Positions 1,815 through 59,800 of a stretch of DNA of 64,000 nucleotides are shown piece by piece. Origin of the DNA: Argopecten irradians (Eukaryota; Mollusca; Bivalvia; Pectinida; Pectinidae); contig NC_091146.1 of assembly GCF_041381155.1 (NCBI RefSeq), forward strand, positions 2,497,224 through 2,561,223, in the 5' to 3' direction. Position 1 is the first letter of the stretch. Every line of letters starts with the position of its first letter. Below the pieces are notes generated by a model. The model was not told the DNA's origin and searched no databases. It saw only the letters and a list, made by a program, of their open reading frames with translations. The translations under genes and the position numbers were made by a program.

Positions 1815-2640
1815 TATATAGTATATAAGATATCTTATTTAATTTTCTATATAAGATATCTCATATCGTATATAAGATATCTTAATTATTACATAAGATA
1901 TCTTGTATAATTGAAATATCGTTGCTATATAAGATATCTTATATAAAATGAAATTTCGTAGCATTTCAAACCAGAAACTAATTTCTCCCTCGAGCATTAT
2001 TTGGAGCACTTTGGAGCACATCTTAGAATCGTTCGCAATGACAGAGACGGCACTGAAAGGGAGAATCAACCGCTGTTTGGTTGTATTCAACGATGTATTT
2101 AAAACACAGAAGCAGTTAATTCCCATCACTCTAGTTGTCAAGTCGTACATGTCGACAATGAATATATTGGTTATTTTCCTGACCTGTTTATGAAACTTTT
2201 GTCTCGTTCAACCAATACTGGCGTAGCATGCATATAGTAGCCAACAAGAGTCTGGCTGAACGAGTAGTAGTATACTGTACAACTCTCTATGACTTTCGGG
2301 TACGGAGACTTCATTTTTGGGAACCTGTTGAAATCCTATATAGCAACGAGATTTCAATTATATAAGATAGTTTATATATCATATTAGATATCTTATATAG
2401 ATAACTCAAATGAGATATATTATATACGATATAAGATATCTTATATAGAATTAATTAAAATATATATATATAAGATATCTTATATATTATATGAGATATT
2501 TTATATATTAAATAAGATATCTTATATATTATATGAGATAGTTTATATATTATATGAAATACATTGTATCTCATATACTATATGAAAGATATCTCATATA
2601 TCGCAATCAAGATATCTTATATATATGCATTGAAATTAAG
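1815..2640. repeat. AAGATATCTT palindromic array with inverted arms
   Basis: Two clusters of the palindrome ATAAGATATCTTAT (about 1815-1945 and 2350-2640) flank a 400-bp non-repetitive core. The core is bounded by inverted copies of a 26-bp sequence (1906-1931 and 2337-2363, one mismatch; it reads GTTGCTATATA at its inner end on the left). The layout resembles a non-autonomous element with repeated subterminal palindromes. Short open frames in the core have no recognisable similarity and are not called. A related cluster lies at 44780-45000. Confidence 0.7.
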
Positions 2641-4124
2641 GATCGGCAATGCTCTTTGAATAAATGTCATGTTGGCTCGCCATATTGATTGCCATGATAA
2701 TAAGACGGTGGTAGCTGATTGGTTGATATTGATACATATTGCCAGATTTTAATGGAAATTGGTATACATATATATGCTGAATAACATATGAACACCTCCA
2801 AAATGTTTGGTTTCCATGGTAACAGAATGGGCGACTCTGAATGGTTGAAATTTAGATATTTTAAGCATAAGTGAAACTTAGTACATAGGGCAATGGATAT
2901 ATAAAGTATTGTAGTAACTTCTACAAATTTATCCTTTTATAATATGTATCGTATATGTTAAATCATGATCATAATCGTATTAAGCATTACTCTCTTTTTC
3001 CAGTTTTATTGGGTGCGAATCTAGTATTCGCTTGTGTTAGGGGCTTTTGCCAATAACTGGCTATGGACTTTTGTAGTCCCAGACACAGGAAGAATCACTG
3101 GATTATGTATTAAAACTGAGAAAAATTCAAAAAGTATTAGTGGCTTACTAGTCTGTTATACTACATAACTAATTACTATCTTACTGCTATAATTTGATTC
3201 AGTCTATTAATGAATTAACTCCCTTGTACAATTATTAGAAAAAAAATATATCAAAATGAAATTTATTCCTAAACTTGTATATCCATAGGAGTATATAATA
3301 CATGGCATAGTATTAATATTTTTTGTTACTTACCATATTTGATTAAATAACATGATGTTTAATCAACTTATTACATGTATATAATTTAATTTGTATAGTT
3401 TCTGGCTAGGAAGGGAGGAGCCTATATAGGCCTAGCCTGTTGCCCAATCCTTTTGATTTTTTTCAATATATTTTCTCGAAATGAAATGTGCCTTCAAATC
3501 CAATAACGTCGGTTTTTCATTGTTGGGATAAATGGATTTTGACCTTTCGTTCTGATCAAGTTATGCCCCAAAATGGACAGACCATAGGGAAAGGCCAAAC
3601 TCATCAAAATCTATCCAACATATTTTGATACAAAATCGCCAAAATTTCCCGACGCAAAAATTTACAATTTACGGTAACAAGTAGATTCTTGTCGTGACGC
3701 TAACCTTGTGTTTAATCTTCATAACTTAAAAATAAACAATCATCGCGAAAGATACACCTCATCAACATATACAATAGTATAACATTCTAGGTGGCGTTTG
3801 ATAACTATTTCGTTCATACCTACGAGTGTAATACTGGCTGGTCCAGGGCAATACACCCATGTCTCCTGAGTCTGTACTGCATGCGCTATGGCTACCCATA
3901 CAATAAAGCTTTATGACGTCACGGCGTCAACAATATCTCTATATCCCCGGTAAAATTTTAACATTTTTTTTCACAAATATGACTGGTTTTACCATAAAAG
4001 ATCAAGCAACGGAATTTGTTCATGTATGGAAAATTGACTTCCAGTCGTCGATTTCATCGAATTTATTTCAAAATGGCTGGATATTATAGCTGTAAAATTG
4101 CAATAAAACATCGAGGTATGAAAG
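2641..4124. other. Stretch without a recognisable gene
   Basis: AT-rich, with short open frames only. Nothing was recognised as coding, RNA or mobile. Confidence 0.5.
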
Positions 4125-20940: not shown

Positions 20941-22687
20941 CTCATCTACGGCGGCGTATTACGGCCACTATATAATTCAGTTTATCTTGTACGTACGACT
21001 TAGTATCTTGTACGTACAAGTTATTATCTTGTCCGTACAACTTAGTATCTTGTACGTACAAGATAGTATCTTGTACGTACAAGTTAATATCTTGTACGTA
21101 CAAGTTAGTATCTTGTACGTTCAAGATACGTAAAAGTTAGTATCTTGTACGTACAACTTAGTATCTTGTACGTACAAGTTATAATCTTGTACGTACAACT
21201 TAGTATCTTGCACGTACAAGATACTATCATGTACGTATAAGTTAGTATCTTGTACGTACAAGTTATTATCTTGTACGTACAACTTAGTATCTTGTACGTA
21301 CAAGATAGTATCTTGTACGTACAAGTTACGTACAAGTTAGTATCTTGTACGTACAAATTAATATCTTGTACGTACAAGTTATTACCTTGTACGTTCAAGA
21401 TACGTAAAAGTTAGTATCTTGTACGTACAACTTAGTATCTTGTTGTACGTACAACTTAGTATCTTGTACGTACAAGATACTATCATGTACGTATAAGTTA
21501 GTATCTTGTACGTACAAGTTACTATCTTGTACGTACAACTTATAGTATGCTGTACGTACAACTTAGTATCTTGTACATACAAGTTGAGTTGAACTGCTGT
21601 TCTTCATCGCAGAATTGAGTCACCCGCCTGATATTTTTCGCAATTAAAGATAGTCTGTCGACTTTGCATTGCTTCAAGCACGATCATAGGTTTATTAACT
21701 TATTTGACAATATTAAAAATATAAATATATATTAATGAGGACAATATCTTTTTCACAATCCTAATTTGAAATTGCCGGATTATGAGTTGAAACTGTATAG
21801 TCACTTGCATTATTTTGAAACTGACACTGTATAGTTCCTTTCGAGGAAACTGTATAGTCGCTTGTTTTATAGATAAGATATATTTAGTGATAAAATGGAT
21901 ATGATACATCTCCGATGAATGATAAATTTTATCTATTAAAAAGAGGAGAAAACAAATTCGTAATTTTCTTCAGCAATTAAAGCTAAATACTTCACACTGG
22001 TGCCATTATTGGAAATGTTGGAGCATTTATTTTACTTTAGAATAGTAGTATTGAAAATAATTAACTGCCTCCGAAAAAAATCCTAGGCATTATGCCGTAA
22101 TTCGAACGAGTTATTGATTGCACTGACAACAAACGCAAAACAAATTATTTCATATGTGTTTTTGTGTTTATTAGACATATATACACACATCAATTATTGT
22201 CCAAATGATGATCATAGTTAATACTCCGTTTTAAACATTTACATGTATATGTTCGGAAACTTATCACAGCATCACAACTCAACAAAATGTCGCAAGGTAT
22301 TCTTTTTTTTCCATTTGGCTTAAACAAAGGGTACGTAATATACGTATAGCTTCATGCGATGCCATTGTGACAGTAAACCAGTCACAGCCTTTAATAGCGA
22401 GAGTTTCAACATTATTCTACCTTGTACGTACAAAATACTATCTTGTACGTACAAGATACTAAGTTGTACGTACAAGATAGTAACTTGTACGTAAGATACT
22501 AAGTTGTACGTAAAAGATACTACCTTGTACGTACAATATACTACCTTGTACGTACAAAATACTACCTTGTACGTACAAAATACTACCTTGTACGTACAAG
22601 ATACTAACTTGTACGTACAAGATAATAACATGTACGTACAAGATAAATAAAATTTTGTAGTGGCCCTAATATGCCGCCGTACTCATC
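20941..22687. mobile_element. TIR element with inverted palindromic 21-bp arrays, 6-bp target duplication
   Basis: The element body is 20947-22681 (1735 bp). The ends are inverted with 43 of 50 matches: left TACGGCGGCGTATTACGGCC, right reversed TACGGCGGCATATTAGGGCC. A perfect 6-bp direct repeat CTCATC flanks it (20941-20946, 22682-22687). Directly inside each TIR is a tandem array of 21-bp units carrying the palindrome CTTGTACGTACAAG: about 28 units at 20983-21588 and about 11 at 22419-22645, in opposite orientation. An ~830-bp non-repetitive core separates them. No transposase was recognised. The design matches fold-back elements, whose long inverted ends are built from short tandem repeats. 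Confidence 0.88.
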
Positions 22688-30944: not shown

Positions 30945-31030
30945 CCCTACGGCCCAAAAGTCCAAAGGCTCATTAGTCCTAAGGCCCGTTAGTCCGAAGG
31001 CCCAATAGTCCGAAGGCCCGATAGTCCAAA
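30945..31030. repeat. 16-bp tandem repeat (GGCCCGTTAGTCCGAA)
   Basis: About five copies of a 16-bp unit, AAGGCCCGTTAGTCCG and close variants. Inverted relatives are at 44270-44330. Confidence 0.75.
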
Positions 31031-36672: not shown

Positions 36673-39477
36673 TCATTTGTTGACACTTGAATCGTCATCT
36701 GTTGACACATAGTAATCATTTGTTGACACTTGATCGTCATCTGTTGACACCGACTCTTCGTCCGATAGAGAATCTTGAAATTCATCGTCCCCTATTTCCT
36801 CAGTTACCCTTTGTGGTTGTGAGGGCGTCAAATGAACTCTGTTCCTCCTTAATGTCTGTCCATCTGTTGTGCGGATAATATAAGACCGATCCCCATACAG
36901 ATCAATAACTGTAGCCGTTTTCCAGTTTTTCATTCCCTGGTTTTTATACTTAACAGTGTCACCCCTCCCTAAAGGTGGGAGTGTTTTCGACTTCTGGTCA
37001 TAATATTGTTTATTTTTTTGTTGTTGTCTCTCCATGTTTTTGAATGCTTCGGCATTACGATCGCGACTTGACGGTTTAAGTAGTTTCGATGACATTGGTA
37101 GAGACGATCTTAACCTTCGTCCCATCAACAGTTGAGCTGGTGATGAACCTGAATCTCCAGGAGTATTCCTGAATTCCAGTAATGCTAAGTAAGGATCTTT
37201 CCCGTCTTTCATCGCTTTCTGGAGCATGTTTTTGACAGTTTGAACCGATCTTTCCGCCATGCCATTACTTTGAGCGTGGTGTGGACTACTCGTTATGTGC
37301 TTAAACTTCCAGCTCTGGCTGAATTCCTTGAAATCCCTTGAACTATATTGAGGACCATTATCGGATACTACTTCCGTTGGAATTCCGTATCTAGCAAAGA
37401 TTGATTTCATGTGACTGATTACTGTAGTCGAGCGTGTATCACTCAATATTGACATTTCTATAAACTTTGAGTGGTAGTCAACAACCAACAAGTATGAATG
37501 TCCATCAAATTGAAACAAGTCTGTCCCTATCTTCTCCCACGGTCCAGCAGGTATCTCGTGAGGTTTTAAAGGTTCCCGCGTATTGGCGTTTCTGTAGGAA
37601 CAGCACACGTCACACTTGGACACAAAGTCCTCTATTTGACTATTCATACCAGGCCAATATACTGCTTCACGTGCTCGAGCTTTACATAGCTTCATTCCAA
37701 AATGACCTTCATGGATTATTTCGAGTATCTGTTTTCTCATACTCACTGGCACTACAATACGGTCATGTTTGAACACAATACCTTCATTTACGGTAAAGTC
37801 AGCTTTCTCATTAAAGTATGGTTGAACACACTGTGGAACTTTACGTTTGTCGTCCGGCCAACCAACCTGAATTACTTTGGTGAGTTCTTGCAAAGTAGTA
37901 TCCTTGAGCGTTTCTCTCTGAAACTCCTCCAACTTTGTAGTAGTTACAGGTAAACTATTCATCACGAGATGAATTTGTGCCTCAACATCCTCTGTAAGGT
38001 CATCCTCATTTTCACAATAAGATAATGGTGATCTTGACAACTGATCTGCGATATGCATTTCTTTGCCTGGCTTGTAAACAACCTGAAGCTGATATCTCTG
38101 TAGTCTCATAAGTAGCCGTTGTAGTCTAGGAGTTGTCTCCCCTATGGCCTTTTTAACTATAGTCACCAGAGGTTTATGATCGGTTTCCACCAAAACCTCT
38201 CTGCCATATACATATTGATGAAACCGTTCACAGCCATATACAATCGCCAGTAGTTCTTTTTCAATCTGTGCGTATCCTCGCTGTGTATCATTGAGAGTTT
38301 TTGACGCATATTCCACTGGTCTGTCATGTTGAAGTAGTACAGCTCCTACCCCGTACATAGACGCATCTACAGATAATGTTACAGGTTTCGATACATCATA
38401 AAACTGTAAAACTGGTGCATTAGTAACTAAAGCTTTCAGATCCTTGAAGGATTTTTCCTGACTTGCTTCCCATACCCATAGCACATCTTTTTTCAACAGT
38501 TCACGGAGTGGTGCAGCAATTGTTGACAGATCTTTTACGAATTTGGCTAGGTAGTTTACCATGCCTAAGAATCGCTGTAGTTCTTTTTTGTTGTTAGGCG
38601 TCGGCATTTCCCTTATAGCACTGACCTTTGTATCATCTGGCTGTATACCTTCCCCAGAATATTTATGTCCAAAATATACTACCTCTGTGAGCCCTATTTG
38701 GCATTTATCTTTATTCAGACTCATTCCTTTGTTTTGTAACCGCCTAAGGACTTGTTCCAGTCTACTGTCGTGTTCTTCACGTGTTGTTCCCCATATGAGA
38801 ATGTCGTCGATTATCGATTTGACACCTTTAATGCCATGCAGAATGTTACATATCATCTTGTGAAAAACTTCTGGTGCACTTTTAATTCCGAACGGCAACC
38901 GTTTGAAACAATAACGCCCATATGGTGTATTAAAAGTGGTCAACTTTGAACTTTCAGTGTCTATTTTGACTTGCCAAAACCCGCTGCTAGCATCAAGTTT
39001 ACTGAAATACTTCGCACCTGCAAGCAAACTGCTTACTTCTTCTGATGTTGGTAAGGGATAATGTTCACGACGAATGGCAACATTAAGATCTTTAGGATCT
39101 AAACAAATGCGTAACTTGCCATTAGGTTTTTCGACGACAACCATTGAGCTAACCCATTCGGTGGGCTGATCTACTTTCGCTATCACCCCGAGTTCCTCCA
39201 TTCGTGAAAGTTCATCAAGTACACGATCCCTTAATGCTACAGGTAGGCGACGCGGTGCATGAACAACAGGAATCACTGATGAATCCACTTCAATATGATG
39301 CTCACCAGGTAAACAACCTAACTTGTCGCTGAACAAATCACTGAACTTGTCTAGTAATTTCGAATGTTTATCAGAGTTGACTGCGTTGACTGTAACTTGT
39401 TGTACTAAATTCCACTCCTCACAGGTTTGTTGTCCTATGACTGGCATAGAGTCTAGTTTCACCACTAAGAATTCCAC
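36673..39477 (-). pseudogene. pol region of the gypsy element (RT, RNase H, integrase)
   Basis: A fossil part of the element. In order it shows the reverse transcriptase (LPFGIKSAPEVF, SIIDDILIWG), RNase H (LSVDASMYGVGAVLLQ, TDHKPL), the integrase zinc finger (HEGHFGMKLCKAR, CDVCCSY) and the integrase core (SDNGPQYSSRDF, SNGMAERSVQTVK). The C-terminal tail carries an acidic Ser/Thr/Asp-rich repeat (VSTDDD-like). Strand and order agree with the LTR and polypurine tract positions. Confidence 0.92.
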
Positions 39478-39478
39478 A

Positions 39479-40407
39479 TTAGCTGTTCTGTTTTTGTGTT
39501 TTTACACATTTACCTAACACAGGGATACCTTGGCCAGTGTAGGTTGAGAGTTTGGCGTTGGATTTTTGTAGTTTTGTCTTCCCTTTAACTTGTCGGAACA
39601 TTTTCTCAGGTATCACATTTGCCTCAGCACCGGTGTCTAACTTCAAATCAATCATATGATTGTTTACATTAAGTGTAGTTTCCCAATTCCGGTTTTTACT
39701 TCTCCGTCTGTTTACCACACCAATGAATAGATGATTGACAGTCTGACCTGTATTTGTCGTCGTACCTGTAGACCTGCACATGGACTTGTAGTGATTTTTA
39801 ACACCACATTTGTAACATGTCCTACCAAATGCTGGGCATTGTCTGGGTGGATGGTCTGTACCACATTTACCACATGATTTCCCTCTGTGTGAATTGTTAG
39901 GACTAGGTTTTTGACCTCCTTTCCTCTGATTAGAACCATTTTTAGATTTGGGATTCCCTGTAGACTGACTTGACTTCTTCTGTTTGACTACGTGAACTTT
40001 GTGATCATCATGACTAGTCGTTTCATTCAAGTCTTTTAACTGTGCACTTGTTGTCTCCGCAACACGACAGATATCGACTGCTTTTCTTAATGATAGTTCA
40101 GGTTCCCTTAACAATCTGGCCCTAGCCGTGTCTGACGTAATTCCCCCGACAATTCTGTCCTTAATTAGACACTCGTATAAGTCTGCAAATTCGCACTTTT
40201 TTGCCTGATTTTTTAACTCTGTGACAAATTGGTCGATTGTCTCGGACTGTCCCTGGGAGCGGAAAAAAAATTATGTCTCTCATATGTAACATTTTTTAAC
40301 GGAGCACAATGAGCTTCATACCTTTGTAGAAGGGGCACGATTTTATCAACATCTTCATCCGGAAATTGGAATGTGTTGAAAACTTCTATCCCTTCATCTC
40401 CGACCAC
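39479..40407 (-). pseudogene. gag (nucleocapsid) and protease region of the gypsy element
   Basis: A fossil part of the element. It includes a basic region followed by cysteine knuckles (CGKCGTDHPPRQC, CYKCGVKNHYKSMC) and a retroviral-type aspartic protease start (LKLDTGAEANVIP). It lies upstream of pol in the coding orientation, as expected for Ty3/gypsy. Confidence 0.85.
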
Positions 40408-40694: not shown

Positions 40695-41888
40695 AGCGTC
40701 TAAGCGAACAACAGGTAATCAGGTAATGTACATATTTCCAAGAATAAAAACATTACAGGTAGCTTATCCTAAACAGTATCATCAGCTTTATCCTCCGTCA
40801 TTGCATTCAAAATGGGCCTACACACACCATGCAAATACTTGTCTACATACCTGCAGTCGTTTCGTATTATTGATATATGATCAAATTGAATAAAAAGCAT
40901 ATTTTAGAAATAATAGAAAGCTGTCATTGTTATATTTCAAACCAAACTGCAGCTATAACATTCAACACTCGGAACTATATCTACCGCCATCCTGACTACC
41001 GTAGTTACCCAGCTTAGCAACCAACATCGTTTTAAATTTGATCACGAACATGTAAAAATAGAATTATTCATGTAAATATAATGTTATAGATTGAACAGTG
41101 TTTTGATTGCGAGGTGGTATGAACGCAATGGGATACAGACATATTCCGTACATGTAGCACTAACGCGCTACATTGAATAAGCGAACAATAGGTAACAGGT
41201 CATGTACAGGATTCCAGAAAAAAAAAAACATGTAGCCTATCCGAAACAGCATCGTCAGCTTTATCCTCCGTCTTTGCATTCAAAATAGGTCTACTGTACA
41301 CACACCATGCAAATACTTGTCTATCCGCCGTACTATAAAATAAAAGCCGTGACTATGAAGAAGTTAGTCCATATCGCGTTCGTACACCGATACATACATG
41401 ACAAACATTCAGCAGCTCAACGGTCATACCGTCAATAACTGTCCTCGGTTGAAAATCAAATATGGCGGCTCGCTCCACTTCGGACCTTGACAAAGATACA
41501 TACCGGTAGTCGTTTCGCCTCGGTTATCTCTATTTTTATACGAAATGGACATTATTGACAGATTGATTCTATATTTAATCAAATTGAAAAAAAAAAAAAA
41601 AAAAAAAAAAAAAACATTTCAAAAATAATTGAAAAGTGTCATTGTTATATTTCAAATTAAACTGCCGCTATAAAGTTCAACAATCGGAACTATATCTTCG
41701 GCAATCCTGACTACCGTAGTTACCCAGCTTTTGCTTAGCAAATTCGTTTTAAATTTTATCACGAACATGTATGTGGAAATTGACTTATTTATGTAGATAT
41801 ATAGATTGAACAGTTTAACGCGCTACATTGAATATGTCTGTATCCCATTGCGTTCATACCACTTTTAACGCAATCAAAACACTGTTTA
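40695..41888. repeat. ~480-650-bp direct duplication with an inverted 53-bp arm
   Basis: Two diverged copies (40695-41093 and 41180-41820) share AAGCGAACAA, CTTTATCCTCCGTC, CACACCATGCAAATACTTGT and CCTGACTACCGTAGTTACCC. In addition, 41094-41146 is inverted at 41830-41886 (GCAATGGGATACAGACATAT and its complement), so the second copy is bounded by inverted arms. The A run at 41588-41612 is a simple repeat. No coding sequence. Confidence 0.75.
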
Positions 41889-43707: not shown

Positions 43708-44269
43708 AGATGTATGTCGTTATAAAGGTAATCTTATGTGGTATTTTCAGTCACAACAAAAACATGATTTCACTATGACTTATGCCAGGCCAAAGGCCAA
43801 ATGGGCTTTCGATTTACCAGTGTTAATGTAGGGGGTACTGTAGTCATAATAATGTTCCAATCTGGGTTAAAGTATTATAGACATATGTGTATCAATGCAA
43901 TTAACTAATTTAAAATTCAAAAATCAAAAAATTATCGTGAGCGGATTTTCACCCTCTATGCAACACCTCCTCTGTAAGATAATTCACAGAATGTGTGTTT
44001 GTGAGATACATTTATCTTATAAAACGTAAGATATTTTCTTTCTTTTCAAGATTTTTTTTATAACTTTGATGCAATTCTGATCATGCAATGCTTTTTGAAG
44101 AAATCACAACTTTCCGTCTATAACAATTAGCAGTTAAATCAATTTAAAGCAGTGCCGAAAAAAATGTAATGATCAAAACCCATCGAAAACATACCAAATT
44201 ATCGAATTTACGTAAATTATAACAACTACATATATATAACTACTAATATTTACTTATTTTCTGACGAAC
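43708..44269. other. Stretch without a gene; paralogue of 32505-32740
   Basis: 43965-44235 is a diverged relative of 32505-32740 in the same orientation (GTAAGATAATTCACAGAA, TTTGATGCAATTCTGA, TTATAACAACTAC). An unclassified dispersed repeat is likely. Confidence 0.55.
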
Positions 44270-44330
44270 GGGCCTTCGGACTAATGGGTCTTTGGACTAA
44301 CGGGCCTTCGGACAATTGGGCCGTTTCATT
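44270..44330. repeat. 16-bp tandem repeat, inverted relative of 30945-31030
   Basis: GAACGGGCCTTCGGACTAAT and variants, three to four units, the inverse of AAGGCCCGTTAGTCCG. Confidence 0.7.
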
Positions 44331-44779: not shown

Positions 44780-45000
44780 TTTAATCGAATTATATAATAT
44801 ATATATCTTATATAACATATAAGATATCTTATATAGCATATAAGATATCTCATATAATTATAAAAAAAATCTCATATAATATATAAGATATCAATATAAG
44901 ATATATCATATATTATATAAGATATCTTATAAAGTTTCTCTAATATAGAAATTAAATAGGATATCTTATTTATGTATATAAGATATCTCATATAATATAA
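44780..45000. repeat. AAGATATCTTATA palindromic array, second locus
   Basis: About ten copies of ATAAGATATCTTATA-like palindromes, as at 1815-2640, without the core found there. Confidence 0.75.
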
Positions 45001-51472: not shown

Positions 51473-51607
51473 CAATGAACACGGACATATTAGATACATC
51501 AAGTAATAACTCAACAACAGTAAGGATACCACACGGTGGATACATATCATAACAACAGTAGGACACATTACAGGATAACCAATTTACAGAAAACTAGTAT
51601 CGTTATA

Positions 51608-52053
51608 ATGCATATCTACATTGTCGTAATGGTATTAGTGTTGGTAAATACCACTTACCAGCAAACCATGGGTCCGGAACGTGAGTTCTGTAAAGCAGTT
51701 CAAGAAAATGAAATTTTGGAGAAGGCATTGCCTCTTATTCGACGTCACCTTGAGGCCGAGACCGAATCCAGTAAACTTCAAATGGACGAGGTCAACGCTG
51801 AACTTACAGCGGTAAAAGCCGAACTAGAAGCAACAAAAGAACAAAATAACGCCATGAATGTTTCCCTGGAAGCTGTAAAGGCAGAATTGGAAACAACAAA
51901 ACAACGCAATAACGCCATGAATGTTTCCCTGGAAGCTGTAAAGGGCAAAATTGGAAACAACAAAACAACGCAATAACGCCATGAATGTTTCCCTTGAAGC
52001 TGTAAAGGCGGAACTAGAAAATATAAAACGACGCTATGACAATGGACTGAAAG
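51608..52053 (+). pseudogene. FREP first exon, copy A (frameshifted duplicate)
   Basis: Nearly identical to the exon at 56369-56813: about two substitutions and one extra G in a G run (51943-51945) over some 600 bp including the promoter. The insertion shifts the frame and ends the product shortly after the third coiled-coil unit begins. The signal peptide start (MHIYIVVMVLVLVNTTYQQ), the repeats and the GT donor after 52053 are otherwise the same. No fibrinogen-domain exon follows before block B starts. Either a recent pseudogene from a tandem duplication, or an assembly duplicate with an uncorrected base error; the noisy surroundings make the second serious. Confidence 0.7.
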
Positions 52054-56233: not shown

Positions 56234-56368
56234 CAATGAACACGGACATATTAGATACATCAAGTAATAACTCAACAACAGTAAGGATACCACACGGTGG
56301 ATACATATCATAACAACAGTAGGGCACATTACAGGATAACCAATTTACAGAAAACTAGTATCGTTATA

Positions 56369-56813
56369 ATGCATATCTACATTGTCGTAATGGTATTAGT
56401 GTTGGTAAATACCACTTACCAGCAAACGATGGGTCCGGAACGTGAGTTCTGTAAAGCAGTTCAAGAAAATGAAATTTTGGAGAAGGCATTGCCTCTTATT
56501 CGACGTCACCTTGAGGCCGAGACCGAATCCAGTAAACTTCAAATGGACGAGGTCAACGCTGAACTTACAGCGGTAAAAGCCGAACTAGAAGCAACAAAAG
56601 AACAAAATAACGCCATGAATGTTTCCCTGGAAGCTGTAAAGGCAGAATTGGAAACAACAAAACAACGCAATAACGCCATGAATGTTTCCCTGGAAGCTGT
56701 AAAGGCAAAATTGGAAACAACAAAACAACGCAATAACGCCATGAATGTTTCCCTTGAAGCTGTAAAGGCGGAACTAGAAAATATAAAACGACGCTATGAC
56801 AATGGACTGAAAG
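56369..56813 (+). CDS. Fibrinogen-related protein, exon 1 (signal peptide and coiled coil)
   Basis: The ATG at 56369 is chosen over an in-frame ATG at 56297 because it opens directly on a signal peptide (MHIYIVVMVLVLVNTTYQQ). The mature part starts near TMGPEREFC and is a heptad-rich coiled coil. It contains three near-identical 21-residue (three-heptad, 63-bp) units, NNAMNVSLEAVKAELETTKQ plus R, each with an N-glycosylation sequon (NVS). A canonical donor follows: CTGAAAG | GTATCC after 56813, leaving phase 1. That fits the exon at 60491, which starts the fibrinogen C-terminal domain. Known FREPs and ficolin-like lectins use a coiled coil to oligomerise a C-terminal fibrinogen domain that binds glycans or microbial surfaces, secreted into haemolymph. 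The role here is inferred from that architecture. Confidence 0.85.
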
Positions 56814-59800
56814 GTATCCGTTTATTTTCCCATGCTACTGCCTCTTGTGTTGACATGGTTTTTTCTTCGTACTAATGTACATTTTTTGTATCTAGTTTAA
56901 AAATGTCTCTATTTCCCCGTACTAATGTCACTGGTTTTATAATATCTCTATTTCCTCGTACTAATGTATCTAGTTTTAAAATGTCTCTATTTCCCCGTAC
57001 TAGTGTATCTAGTTTTAAAATGTCGCTATTTCCCCGTACTAATGTATCTAATTTTAAAATGTCTCTATTTCACTGTACATCATGTACATAATGCGACTTG
57101 TTTTATAATATCCCTATTTCCCCGTACTATTGTCATTAGTTTTATAATATCTCTATTTCCCCGTACTAATGTATCTAGTTTTAAAATGTCTCTACTTCCC
57201 CGTACTAGTGTATCTAGTTTTATAATATCTCTATTTTCCCGAACTAATGTATCTAGTTTGATAATATCTCTATTTCCCCGTACTAATGTCACTGGTTTTA
57301 TAATATCTCTATTTCCCCGTACTAATGTATCTAGTTTTGTAATATCTCTATTTCCCCGTACTAATGTATCTAGTTTTATAATATCTCTATTTCCCCGTAC
57401 TAATGTATCTAGTTTTAAAATGTCTCTATTTCACTGTACATCATGTACTAATGTCACTAGTTTTATAATATCTCCATTTCCCCGTACTAATGTATCTAGT
57501 TTTAAAATGTCTCTATAAATGTCTCTATTTCCCCGTACTAATGTCACTAGTTTTATAATATCTCTATTTCCCCGTACTAATGTATCTAGTTTTAAAATGT
57601 CTCTATTTCCCCGTACTAATGTATCTAGTTTTAAAATGTCTCTATTTCCTCGTACTAATGTATCTAGTTTTAAAATGTCTCTATTTCACTGTACATCATG
57701 TACTAATGTCACTGGTTTTATAATTTCTCTATTTCCCCGTACTATTGTCATTAGTTTTATAATGTCTTTATTTCCCTGTACTAATGTCACTAGTTTTATA
57801 ATATCTCTATTTCCCTGTACTAATGTCACTGGTTTTATAATATCTCTATTTCCCCGTACTAATGTCACTGGTTTTATAATATCTCTATTTCCCCGTACTA
57901 TTGTCATTAGTTTTATAATGTCTTTATTTCCCTGTACTTATGTCACTAGTTTTATAATATCTCTATTTCCCCGTACTAATGTCACTGGTTTTATAATCTC
58001 TCTATTTCCCCGTACTAATGTATCTAGTTTTATAATGTCTTTATTTCCCTGTACTAATGTCACTAGTTTTATAATATCTCTATTTCCCCGTACTAATGTC
58101 ACTGGTTTTATAATCTCTCTATTTCCCCGTACTAATGTATCTAGTTTTATAATGTCTTTATTTCCCTGTACTAATGTCACTAGTTTTATAATATCTCTAT
58201 TTCCCCGTACTAATTTCACTAGTTTTATAATGTCTTTATTTCCCTGTACATAATGTGACTAGTTTTATAATATCTCTATTTCCCCGTACTAATGTCACTA
58301 GTTTTATAATATCTCTATTTCCCCGTACTAATGTATCTAGTTTTAAAATATCTCTATTTCACTGTACATCATATACTAATGTCACTTGTTTTATAATCTC
58401 TCTATTTCCCCGTACTATTGTCATTAATTTTATAATGTCTCTATTTCCCCGTACTAATGTATCTAGTTTTAAAATGTCTCTATTTCCCTGTACTAATGTC
58501 ACTAGTTTTATGATATCTCTATTTCCCCGTACTAATGTCACTAGTTTTAAAATGTCTCTATTTCCCCGTACTAGTGTATCTAGTTTTAAAATATCTCTAT
58601 TTCCCCGTACTAATGTATCTAGTTTTAAAATGTCTCTATTTCACTGTACATCATGTACTAATGTCACTGGTTTTATAATATCTCTATTTCCCCGTACTAT
58701 TGTCATTAATTTTATAATGTCAGTCTTTATTTCCCTGTACTAATGTCACTAGTTTTATAATATCTCTATGTCCCCGTACTAATGTCACTAGTTTTATAAT
58801 ATCTTTATTTCCCCGTACTAATTTCACTAGTTTTATAATGTCTTTATTTCCCTGTACATAATGTGACTAGTTTTATAATATCTCTATTTTTCCGTACCAA
58901 TGACACTAGTTTTATAATATCTCTATTTCCCCGTACTAATGTCACTCGTTTTATAATGTCTGTATTTTCCTGTACCAATGACACTAGTTTTATAATGTCT
59001 GTATTTTCCTGTACTAATGTCACTAGTTTTATAATGTATTTATTTTCCCGTACTAATATCATCAGGGTTTTTTTCGTGTCACTGTTTTGTCTACGCAGAC
59101 TCTGTTCCACTATCACCTCATGTGTTCATGGTAGATACATTGTAATTACCAAAATTTAAGAACAAAATGTATTAAATCATTACAAAAAAGTGTATCATTA
59201 ACGGTACATTAGTTAATAGTTTTCTCCGAACGATTCCAAATATGTACAGATTGTATTAATTATTGTTACAAGATTATGCAATGACAGTCAAAGGGAGATA
59301 ATTTAGTTTTTGTGTATAAAGAGTTATTCCCCTTCATGGTATTCTCTTGGTTTGGAACTGAACAGACGTCTTCTTGTGTCACTACTAATTCCAAGATGTA
59401 AGAGAAGAGCGAGGCCCCCTAAGCCCTCTCACTACACTACATGGTGGAGAATTCAAATCGGGATTGTGAGTTATTATCATAATGTAACTTTCGGAGCTGA
59501 ATCGCCTGTGTGGCGGGCGAGTATATTACTCGTCAGTCAGGGCGCGCCGGCCAGACGTCATTCCGTACCATGTCCTTTTGGGCGGGAAAGATATTTTGTG
59601 ATTTTACAATTTTGAATGACTTTATATTATACATTATATAGTTTGATGCTGATATATCAAAACTTGAACCCATATCTTTTTATTTGACATTGGATCACTG
59701 AATTTGACATTTTCGCCAATTTAGAAATTGTTAAAAATATGTCTGACGAGTCACTAACTTTTGCCGTAGTCGTCGACTAGGGTACTGTGAGCATTATTGA

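What the first reader, a model, noticed from the sequence alone, without database searches (positions are those of the whole stretch)
20941..22687. Fold-back-like element: 50-bp TIRs, inverted arrays of a self-palindromic 21-mer, 6-bp target duplication
TIRs beginning TACGGCGGC and perfect CTCATC duplications delimit 1735 bp. Each end carries a tandem array of units containing CTTGTACGTACAAG, in opposite orientations (~28 versus ~11 units). Long inverted ends made of short tandem repeats are the hallmark of Drosophila FB and sea urchin TU elements. Here each unit is itself palindromic, giving dozens of potential dimeric protein-binding sites beside the TIR.
Basis: partly seen in the sequence, partly recalled or inferred. 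Interest (0 to 1): 0.8.

Follow-up and report, generated by a model that had tools for sequence, protein, structure and literature searches.

The report
Foldback transposon with phased palindrome arms
This is one copy of a recently mobile, gene-less DNA transposon whose two ends are long mirror-image arrays of a 21-base palindrome, and its likely driver, an integrase-like transposase of the IS3EU type, was found beside the same ends elsewhere in the genome.

Summary
Confirmed: a 1,735-bp element at 20947-22681 with CTCATC on both sides and inverted arrays of a palindromic 21-mer. It is one of many in this 846-Mb genome: the 24-nt end occurs 280 times exactly, 541 with up to 3 mismatches, controls 0. 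Of 39 fetched loci with both ends, 27 have perfect 6-bp duplications; two insertions have empty-site matches. Arms are opposed (linkers 332:3 and 373:8), units are 21 bp apart in 1208 of 1335 gaps, and arm length differs between duplicates of one insertion. The foldback shape holds; kinship with FB or TU does not. On C5 a two-exon gene for a rva_4 (integrase-core) transposase sits behind the same TIR and 34 phased units, and the window core carries a decayed copy of its start. TACGG..CCGTA ends, 6-bp duplications and transposase type point to IS3EU/GingerRoot. Paper searches listed no IS3EU foldback element. No two-ended autonomous copy was found. That the palindromes bind the transposase is inferred.

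The parts
20941..20946 (.). target-site duplication, left (CTCATC)
   Evidence: the duplicate of this insertion, L002, has the same flanks at 98-99%
20947..20984 (+). left terminal inverted repeat, about 38 bp before the array
20983..21585 (+). left array, about 27-28 units of the palindromic 21-mer
21586..22416 (.). core, 831 bp, no intact gene; 91-99% identical in L002-L030, 86% in L064, partial and 80-83% in the older L071 and L073
22238..22414 (-). remnant of the 5' end of the transposase gene; ATG at 22365, in-frame stop after 28 codons (MASHEAIRILRTLCLSQMEKKEYLATFC*)
   Evidence: 7 other element copies give short matches starting at residue 7 of the exon-1 frame in a whole-genome protein search
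22417..22645 (-). right array, about 11 units in opposite orientation
22644..22681 (-). right terminal inverted repeat
22682..22687 (.). target-site duplication, right (CTCATC)

Best explanation
The element is a non-autonomous, foldback-structured cut-and-paste DNA transposon of the IS3EU/GingerRoot kind. A DDE integrase-like transposase (rva_4) recognises the TACGGCGGC... ends and inserts with a 6-bp staggered cut. The element descends from an autonomous one laid out as TIR, array of phased palindromes, transposase gene; most of the gene has been deleted, leaving its first ~28 codons in the core. Each arm is a platform of dimer-binding sites two helical turns apart. Most likely the transposase itself binds them to gain specificity and bring the ends together, and to control its own promoter, which the array abuts. 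Arms grow and shrink by unequal exchange or copying between units, and pairing of the arms deletes the core and gives 156-428-bp miniature copies. Shown: multi-copy insertion with 6-bp duplications, opposed phased arrays, linked transposase gene, shared 5' sequence, arm-length differences. Inferred: that this transposase moves the element, that it binds the palindromes, and the route of arm change and core loss.
For: 280 exact TIRs, control 0. 27 of 39 both-ended loci with perfect 6-bp duplications against a shuffled mean of 0.85, maximum 6 in 2000. Empty-site matches for L005 and L004. 17 of 30 aligned cores within 1.1% of consensus (these are top hits to the query, not a random sample). Of 153 rva_4 matches two lie beside our TIRs, judged by eye against the 270 of 280 exact TIR places that were listed. 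In L081: TIR, 34 units all 21 bp apart, ATG 60 bp after the last unit, CAG|GTAAGT donor, AACAG acceptor, 385 aa, rva_4 E = 2e-32. The window core aligns in frame with the gene start. TA..TA / TAYGG..CCRTA termini and 6-bp TSDs are those given for IS3EU. Palindrome bases deviate 1.6%, the TA flanks of the same units 3.3%, flank higher in 29 of 39 elements. Galileo transposase domain binds the tandem repeats of its long TIRs (PMC3688188 abstract).
Against: No second TIR or array within about 6.6 kb downstream of the gene in L081+L082, nor about 5.2 kb downstream in L080+L083, so no complete autonomous copy is shown; both gene copies are one inverted duplication. In L080 the array before the gene starts at a damaged end (AACGGCGGC), is less regular and stands behind further nested copies, so the clean layout rests on L081. 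No IS3EU reference protein was available, so rva_4 = IS3EU is by features only. 12 of 39 loci lack a perfect 6-bp duplication. The left ~650 bp of the core has no match at the C5 gene locus apart from the nested copies there. The nearest relative (59%) on C6 has no such TIR and no such array in the 1.2 kb fetched, which is upstream of and partly over its gene. The palindrome-conservation test finds units by allowing at most 2 changes in the palindrome, which favours it; only 10 units were added back by phase.
Confidence: 0.7

Rival explanations
1. The palindromes are bound by a host dimeric transcription factor, not by the transposase: an enhancer array for transposase expression that hitch-hikes in the non-autonomous copies.
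For: In L081 the array lies directly upstream of the transposase ATG, 60 bp away; a 12-bp palindrome with 21-bp phasing suits any dimeric factor.
Against: Arrays are kept at both ends and in nine coreless 156-428-bp copies that have no gene to express, which favours a role in transposition.
Confidence: 0.25
2. The arrays are passive minisatellites that expanded in the arms by slippage and exchange and have no binding function.
For: Unit number differs between duplicates of one insertion (27/11 against 41/6; 6, 13 and 14); L002 shows a repeated block of units; dispersed satellite-like arrays carried by Helentrons are reported in oyster (PMC7492417, listing only).
Against: Palindrome bases change half as often as the TA flanks of the same units (units and copies are not independent and detection favours the palindrome); orientation by arm is rarely broken (332:3, 373:8); each of the 39 copies keeps at least 4 units.
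Confidence: 0.2
3. The element is moved by another transposase of the genome and the C5 gene was only captured next to a TIR.
For: Both C5 copies are one-ended as far as seen and duplicates of each other; many other rva_4 matches exist (153).
Against: The window core and seven other copies carry the 5' end of this very gene, so gene and arms were one element.
Confidence: 0.08
4. It is a member of the Mutator/Foldback group (FB, TU, Tetris, Tm1).
For: Same gross architecture: long inverted arms of short tandem repeats.
Against: 6-bp duplications and a rva_4 transposase rather than 8-10 bp and Mutator as stated for Tetris. A Mutator transposase was not searched for.
Confidence: 0.02

Closest known systems
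IS3EU/GingerRoot superfamily (Repbase; PMC10045372 passages and section 3.3, PMC12730594 passages)
   Same: TA..TA and TAYGG..CCRTA termini, TIR over 30 bp, 6-bp duplications, DDE integrase-like transposase with no zinc-binding domain found
   Different: Long foldback arms of phased palindromes, not mentioned in the IS3EU passages seen
Galileo (P superfamily, Drosophila; PMC3573991 passages, PMC3688188 abstract)
   Same: Foldback-like copies, tandem repeats inside long TIRs, arm length varies independently, repeats hold transposase-binding sites
   Different: Different transposase superfamily (THAP/P); repeats about 210 bp in the F group, not palindromic 21-mers
Drosophila FB, sea urchin TU, Tetris, Tm1 (Foldback/Mutator; PMC4079207 passages)
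   Same: Inverted arms of short tandem repeats around a variable middle; rearranged copies
   Different: 8-10-bp duplications for Tetris, most foldbacks said to be Mutator; here 6 bp and rva_4
Tandem-repeat-bearing non-autonomous elements of bivalves (PMC7492417 listing, PMC8268682 passages)
   Same: Short dispersed arrays carried by mobile elements; CgiSat35 and CgiSat47 of oyster are annotated DNA/IS3EU
   Different: Described as satellite monomers; opposed terminal arrays of palindromes linked to a transposase are not described in what I saw

Membership tests
IS3EU/GingerRoot | termini TA..TA, in rust fungi TAYGG..CCRTA | tested here: met
   57 of 61 ends in L001-L030 begin TACGG (ends were found by likeness to the TIR); criterion
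IS3EU/GingerRoot | 6-bp target-site duplication | tested here: met
   27 of 39 loci perfect 6 bp, 2 with 7 bp, 3 with one mismatch, 7 none (best pair per locus); shuffle control mean 0.85
IS3EU/GingerRoot | DDE integrase-like transposase without HHCC zinc domain | tested here: met
   rva_4 E = 2e-32, besides it only rve below its cut-off, no zinc domain listed; D131, D190, E230 assigned by eye from motifs
IS3EU/GingerRoot | groups with IS3EU transposases in a tree | not testable with these tools
   no IS3EU reference proteins on hand
IS3EU/GingerRoot | autonomous element with both TIRs around the transposase | tested here: inconclusive
   one TIR with array beside the gene; other end not found in about 6.6 kb
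Foldback (structural class) | long inverted arms built of short tandem repeats, length variable | tested here: met
Foldback/Mutator lineage (FB, TU, Tetris, Tm1) | 8-10-bp duplication | tested here: not met
   6 bp; criterion from PMC4079207 passages on Tetris; no values for FB and TU were looked up
Foldback/Mutator lineage (FB, TU, Tetris, Tm1) | Mutator-type transposase between the same TIRs | not tested
   no search with a Mutator family was run
P superfamily (Galileo) | THAP/P-type transposase | tested here: not met
   the linked gene is rva_4; Pfam lists no THAP domain in it

The most novel reading that the evidence does not exclude
Phased arrays of dimeric palindromes, 21 bp or two helical turns apart, are an end architecture of their own for DNA transposons: a cooperative transposase platform that serves both as a long synapsis enhancer and as the promoter switch of the transposase gene, and which has arisen more than once (a second array of a different palindrome, TATAAGATATCTTATA, stands in inverted arms elsewhere in this window, with 7 of 13 within-array gaps equal to 21 bp).
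Probability: 0.3. Interest if true: 0.7.

Novelty: new variant of a known kind. Interest (0 to 1): 0.52.

Why it matters
Foldback elements have long been orphan structures; most that are placed are said to fall in Mutator, with Galileo in P. This adds the integrase-like IS3EU kind, with a linked transposase gene, so that foldback arms look like a convergent solution and can be tested. Dozens of near-identical phased sites make a clean substrate for asking whether arm repeats are transposase-binding sites, and many young copies allow the growth of arms to be followed.

Tried and rejected
Transposase search with NCBIfam IS481: 63 matches, 30 loci fetched; none has our TIR within 8 mismatches in its 1.5-kb flanks, and the frames that I could read looked like retroelement pol (which read the forward strand only, so minus-strand matches were not read properly). 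TIRs not followed by an array (59 places): six candidates fetched, L071-L076; no transposase-like frame seen by eye (not scanned with profiles). L071 has an abundant unrelated repeat in its core. L072 has a TIR but no array and no second end in 3 kb and stays unexplained. Longest TIR pairs, L077-L079: cores interrupted by other sequence, no transposase frame seen. PDB sequence search with the exon-1 frame: 0 matches. Pfam with exon 2 alone: nothing significant; with both exons the rva_4 match reaches profile position 174 instead of 150. A test for perfect 12-nt palindromes 21 bp apart met only this element in the window, not the second kind of array. Structure prediction was not run: its stated rule does not cover loci taken as this gene was. 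Organism not identified; 16 chromosome-sized contigs and 846 Mb would suit a scallop, which is recall and guess.

Full report
What is there. At 20947-22681 lies a 1,735-bp element between two copies of CTCATC. Its ends are inverted (TACGGCGGC...GCCGCCGTA), and behind each end runs a tandem array of a 21-mer, about 28 units left and 11 right, around an 831-bp core. The palindrome occurs 36 times in the window with up to two mismatches, all in the element, against 0.28 by chance.

It is a mobile family. The genome that holds the window (G000, 846 Mb; window = C13:2497224-2561223) has 280 exact copies of the 24-nt end TACGGCGGCGTANTANGGCCACTA and 541 places within three mismatches of the consensus end; the backward controls give 0. 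Of the 280, 210 are preceded by C or G and 70 by A or T. The full-element DNA search gave 194 matches with only 40 of 3105 candidates scored, so its count is a lower bound. I fetched 30 loci by that search (L001-L030), 30 integrase hits (L031-L060) and 24 by place (L061-L084). Of the 53 loci scanned for element ends (L001-L030 and L061-L083), 39 hold both ends and 14 do not. Taking the best pair per locus, 27 of 39 have a perfect 6-bp duplication, 2 a 7-bp one, 3 one mismatch, 7 none (counted by hand from its rows; 39 and 27 also). Re-pairing the flanks at random gives a mean of 0.85 and at most 6 in 2000 shuffles. L001/L002, L008/L009, L061-L063 and L078/L079 are duplicates of one insertion each, by shared flanks, so the perfect cases stand for 24 of 34 distinct insertions. 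The duplications prefer S at both ends and W inside (25 sequences). Two insertions have empty-site matches: L005 sits inside another copy of the element, and its joined flanks align over 200 bp without a gap to the uninterrupted copy in L030; L004 sits in a repeat of which the window holds unfilled copies, one at 40866-41004 aligned across the junction with small gaps beyond it, one at 41491-41719 with a T-rich insertion next to the junction. Of 30 aligned cores (29 distinct, since L005 and L029 overlap) 17 lie within 1.1% of consensus and the window copy at 5.7%. These are the best hits to the query, not a random sample. The family moved recently; the window copy is older.

Anatomy of the arms. 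The 39 elements hold 1374 units; 1208 of 1335 gaps, core-spanning gaps included, are exactly 21 bp. The unit is TA-W-S-TTGTACGTACAA-S-W-TA plus one spacer base, in essence a 20-bp palindrome repeated every two helical turns. The flank of each half is GATA (1597 of 2768), GTTA (517) or CTTA (402). Orientation was read from four asymmetric linkers and their complements; in core-bearing copies it is 332 forward and 3 reverse in the left arm, 373 reverse and 8 forward in the right, with 189 and 193 linkers of other types not scored. Palindrome bases deviate at 1.6%, the TA bases flanking them at 3.3%; the flank is higher in 29 of 39 elements, lower in 8, equal in 2 (Wilcoxon p = 1.3e-4). Units and copies are related, and units were found by allowing at most two changes in the palindrome, so this is indicative only. 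Genome-wide there are 3769 perfect adjacent unit pairs, control 0. Arms change: the window insertion and its duplicate L002 have 99.3% identical cores but 27/11 against 41/6 units, and L061, L062 and L063 have 6, 13 and 14; assembly error in arrays may add to this. Nine fetched copies have no core and are 156-428 bp of arm against arm. A single strand of the right arm folds at -65.5 kcal/mol against a mean of -25.3 for shuffles (z = -11.9). L018 has an inverted duplication of one end with 29 bp of host flank, as expected if a broken, self-complementary end was copied.

The transposase. A search with the IS481 profile met no element of this kind. The Pfam family rva_4 gave 153 matches. Compared by eye with the 270 of 280 exact TIR places that were listed, two, at C5:8349481 and C5:8412065, lie beside our TIRs. 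L081 reads: TIR, 34 units all 21 bp apart, then 60 bp to an ATG. Exon 1 ends at CAG|GTAAGT; a 646-bp intron ends at AACAG; exon 2 continues the frame to a stop; together 385 aa. The protein matches rva_4 at 2e-32 and otherwise only rve below its cut-off. A D-D-E set at 131, 190 and 230 was assigned by eye. The second gene copy is 99% identical over exon 1 and has exon 2 open too; there the array before the gene starts at a damaged end (AACGGCGGC), is less regular and stands behind further nested copies. Both lie in one inverted duplication; no second TIR or array appears in about 6.6 kb downstream of the gene in L081+L082 or about 5.2 kb in L080+L083, so these are one-ended copies as far as seen.

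The link between gene and element is direct. Window 22238-22414 (minus strand) aligns to the start of the gene: MASHEAIRILRTLCLSQMEKKEYLATFC* against MDTHEAIRTFHTLGLSQLDILEYLATVCGV. A whole-genome protein search with the 318-codon exon-1 frame (its Met is residue 14) gave 125 matches; seven of them are short, start at residue 7 and end at 45-73. All seven overlap a core or lie within 1.7 kb of a TIR or array of this family. The copies are thus internally deleted derivatives of TIR-array-transposase. The left 650 bp of the core is not explained by the C5 locus.

Classification. IS3EU is described with TA..TA termini, usually 6-bp duplications, no HHCC motif (PMC10045372, section 3.3 read), and in rust fungi TIRs over 30 bp with TAYGG..CCRTA (PMC12730594, passages). 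All these are met. A tree with IS3EU proteins could not be made. Foldback elements are said mostly to belong to Mutator with exceptions, and Tetris has 8-10-bp duplications (PMC4079207, passages); Galileo belongs to P (PMC3573991, passages). No Mutator transposase was searched for. In the library searched, 'IS3EU' with 'foldback' occurs in one paper, on oyster satellites; there foldback stands in the reference list and two satellites are annotated IS3EU (passages). A search on foldback, palindromic, 21-bp and related words listed 10 papers, none of which shows such an element in title or start of abstract. Repbase itself was not searched.

How it works. Shown: it is inserted in many places with 6-bp duplications, and shares ends, arrays and gene start with a transposase locus. 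Inferred: the transposase binds the TIR and the phased palindromes. Galileo is the nearest precedent, where the transposase domain binds the tandem repeats of the long arms (PMC3688188, abstract). Because the array also abuts the transposase ATG, the same sites could regulate its transcription. A host factor or no function at all remain possible.

A parallel in the same window. At 1815-1960 and 2355-2625, and again at 44791-45000, stand arrays of another palindrome, TATAAGATATCTTATA (17 matches in the window with up to two mismatches, 16 of them there, chance 0.17); 7 of the 13 gaps inside these arrays are 21 bp. The first two form inverted arms around a ~400-bp core. Against it: no ends or duplication were established, a test for perfect 12-nt palindromes 21 bp apart does not pick these arrays, and none of the 84 loci holds an exact copy. 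Beside the nearest relative of the transposase (C6, 59% identity) there are 2.3 copies of a 23-bp repeat with GGCGGCCGCC and a 39-bp array of 8.2 copies. These are leads only.

Noticed in passing
window 1815-1960, 2355-2625 and 44791-45000: Arrays of a different palindrome (TATAAGATATCTTATA), 7 of 13 within-array gaps being 21 bp, the first two in inverted arms around a ~400-bp core; no TIR or duplication established.
   Followed up: partly
L018, about 2812-3079: One end of an element is duplicated in inverted form together with 29 bp of host flank, as if a hairpin or self-primed end had been copied.
   Followed up: partly
L080-L083 (C5:8345500-8356000 and C5:8404500-8413900): Inverted duplication (94-98% identity in three pieces totalling about 7.6 kb) carrying two rva_4 transposase genes with open exons and one-ended TIR and array.
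   Followed up: partly
L084 (C6:1295050-1296250): Beside a 59%-identical transposase relative: a 39-bp tandem array of 8.2 copies and 2.3 copies of a 23-bp repeat with GGCGGCCGCC.
   Followed up: partly
L072 (C5:28063700-28066700): An exact TIR with no palindrome array and no second end in 3 kb.
   Followed up: partly
L064 and L077 right arms: Short blocks of units flipped against the rest of the arm, suggesting local inversions inside arrays.
   Followed up: no
L078: An element ending in CAGGGTGTCCCAAAAA inverted repeats is nested in the core, and the left array holds a further insertion of about 1 kb that its duplicate L079 lacks.
   Followed up: no
window 51524-51976 and 56285-56875: The same ORF twice with matching 37-bp and 39-bp arrays around it: apparently a tandem duplication of about 4.8 kb.
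   Followed up: no
window 36673-40270 (-): Ty3/gypsy-like pol and gag frames (read by eye).
   Followed up: no
window 30946-31030 and 44259-44322: The same 16-bp repeat (GGCCCATTAGTCCGAA) in opposite orientations 13 kb apart, possibly ends of a larger element.
   Followed up: no
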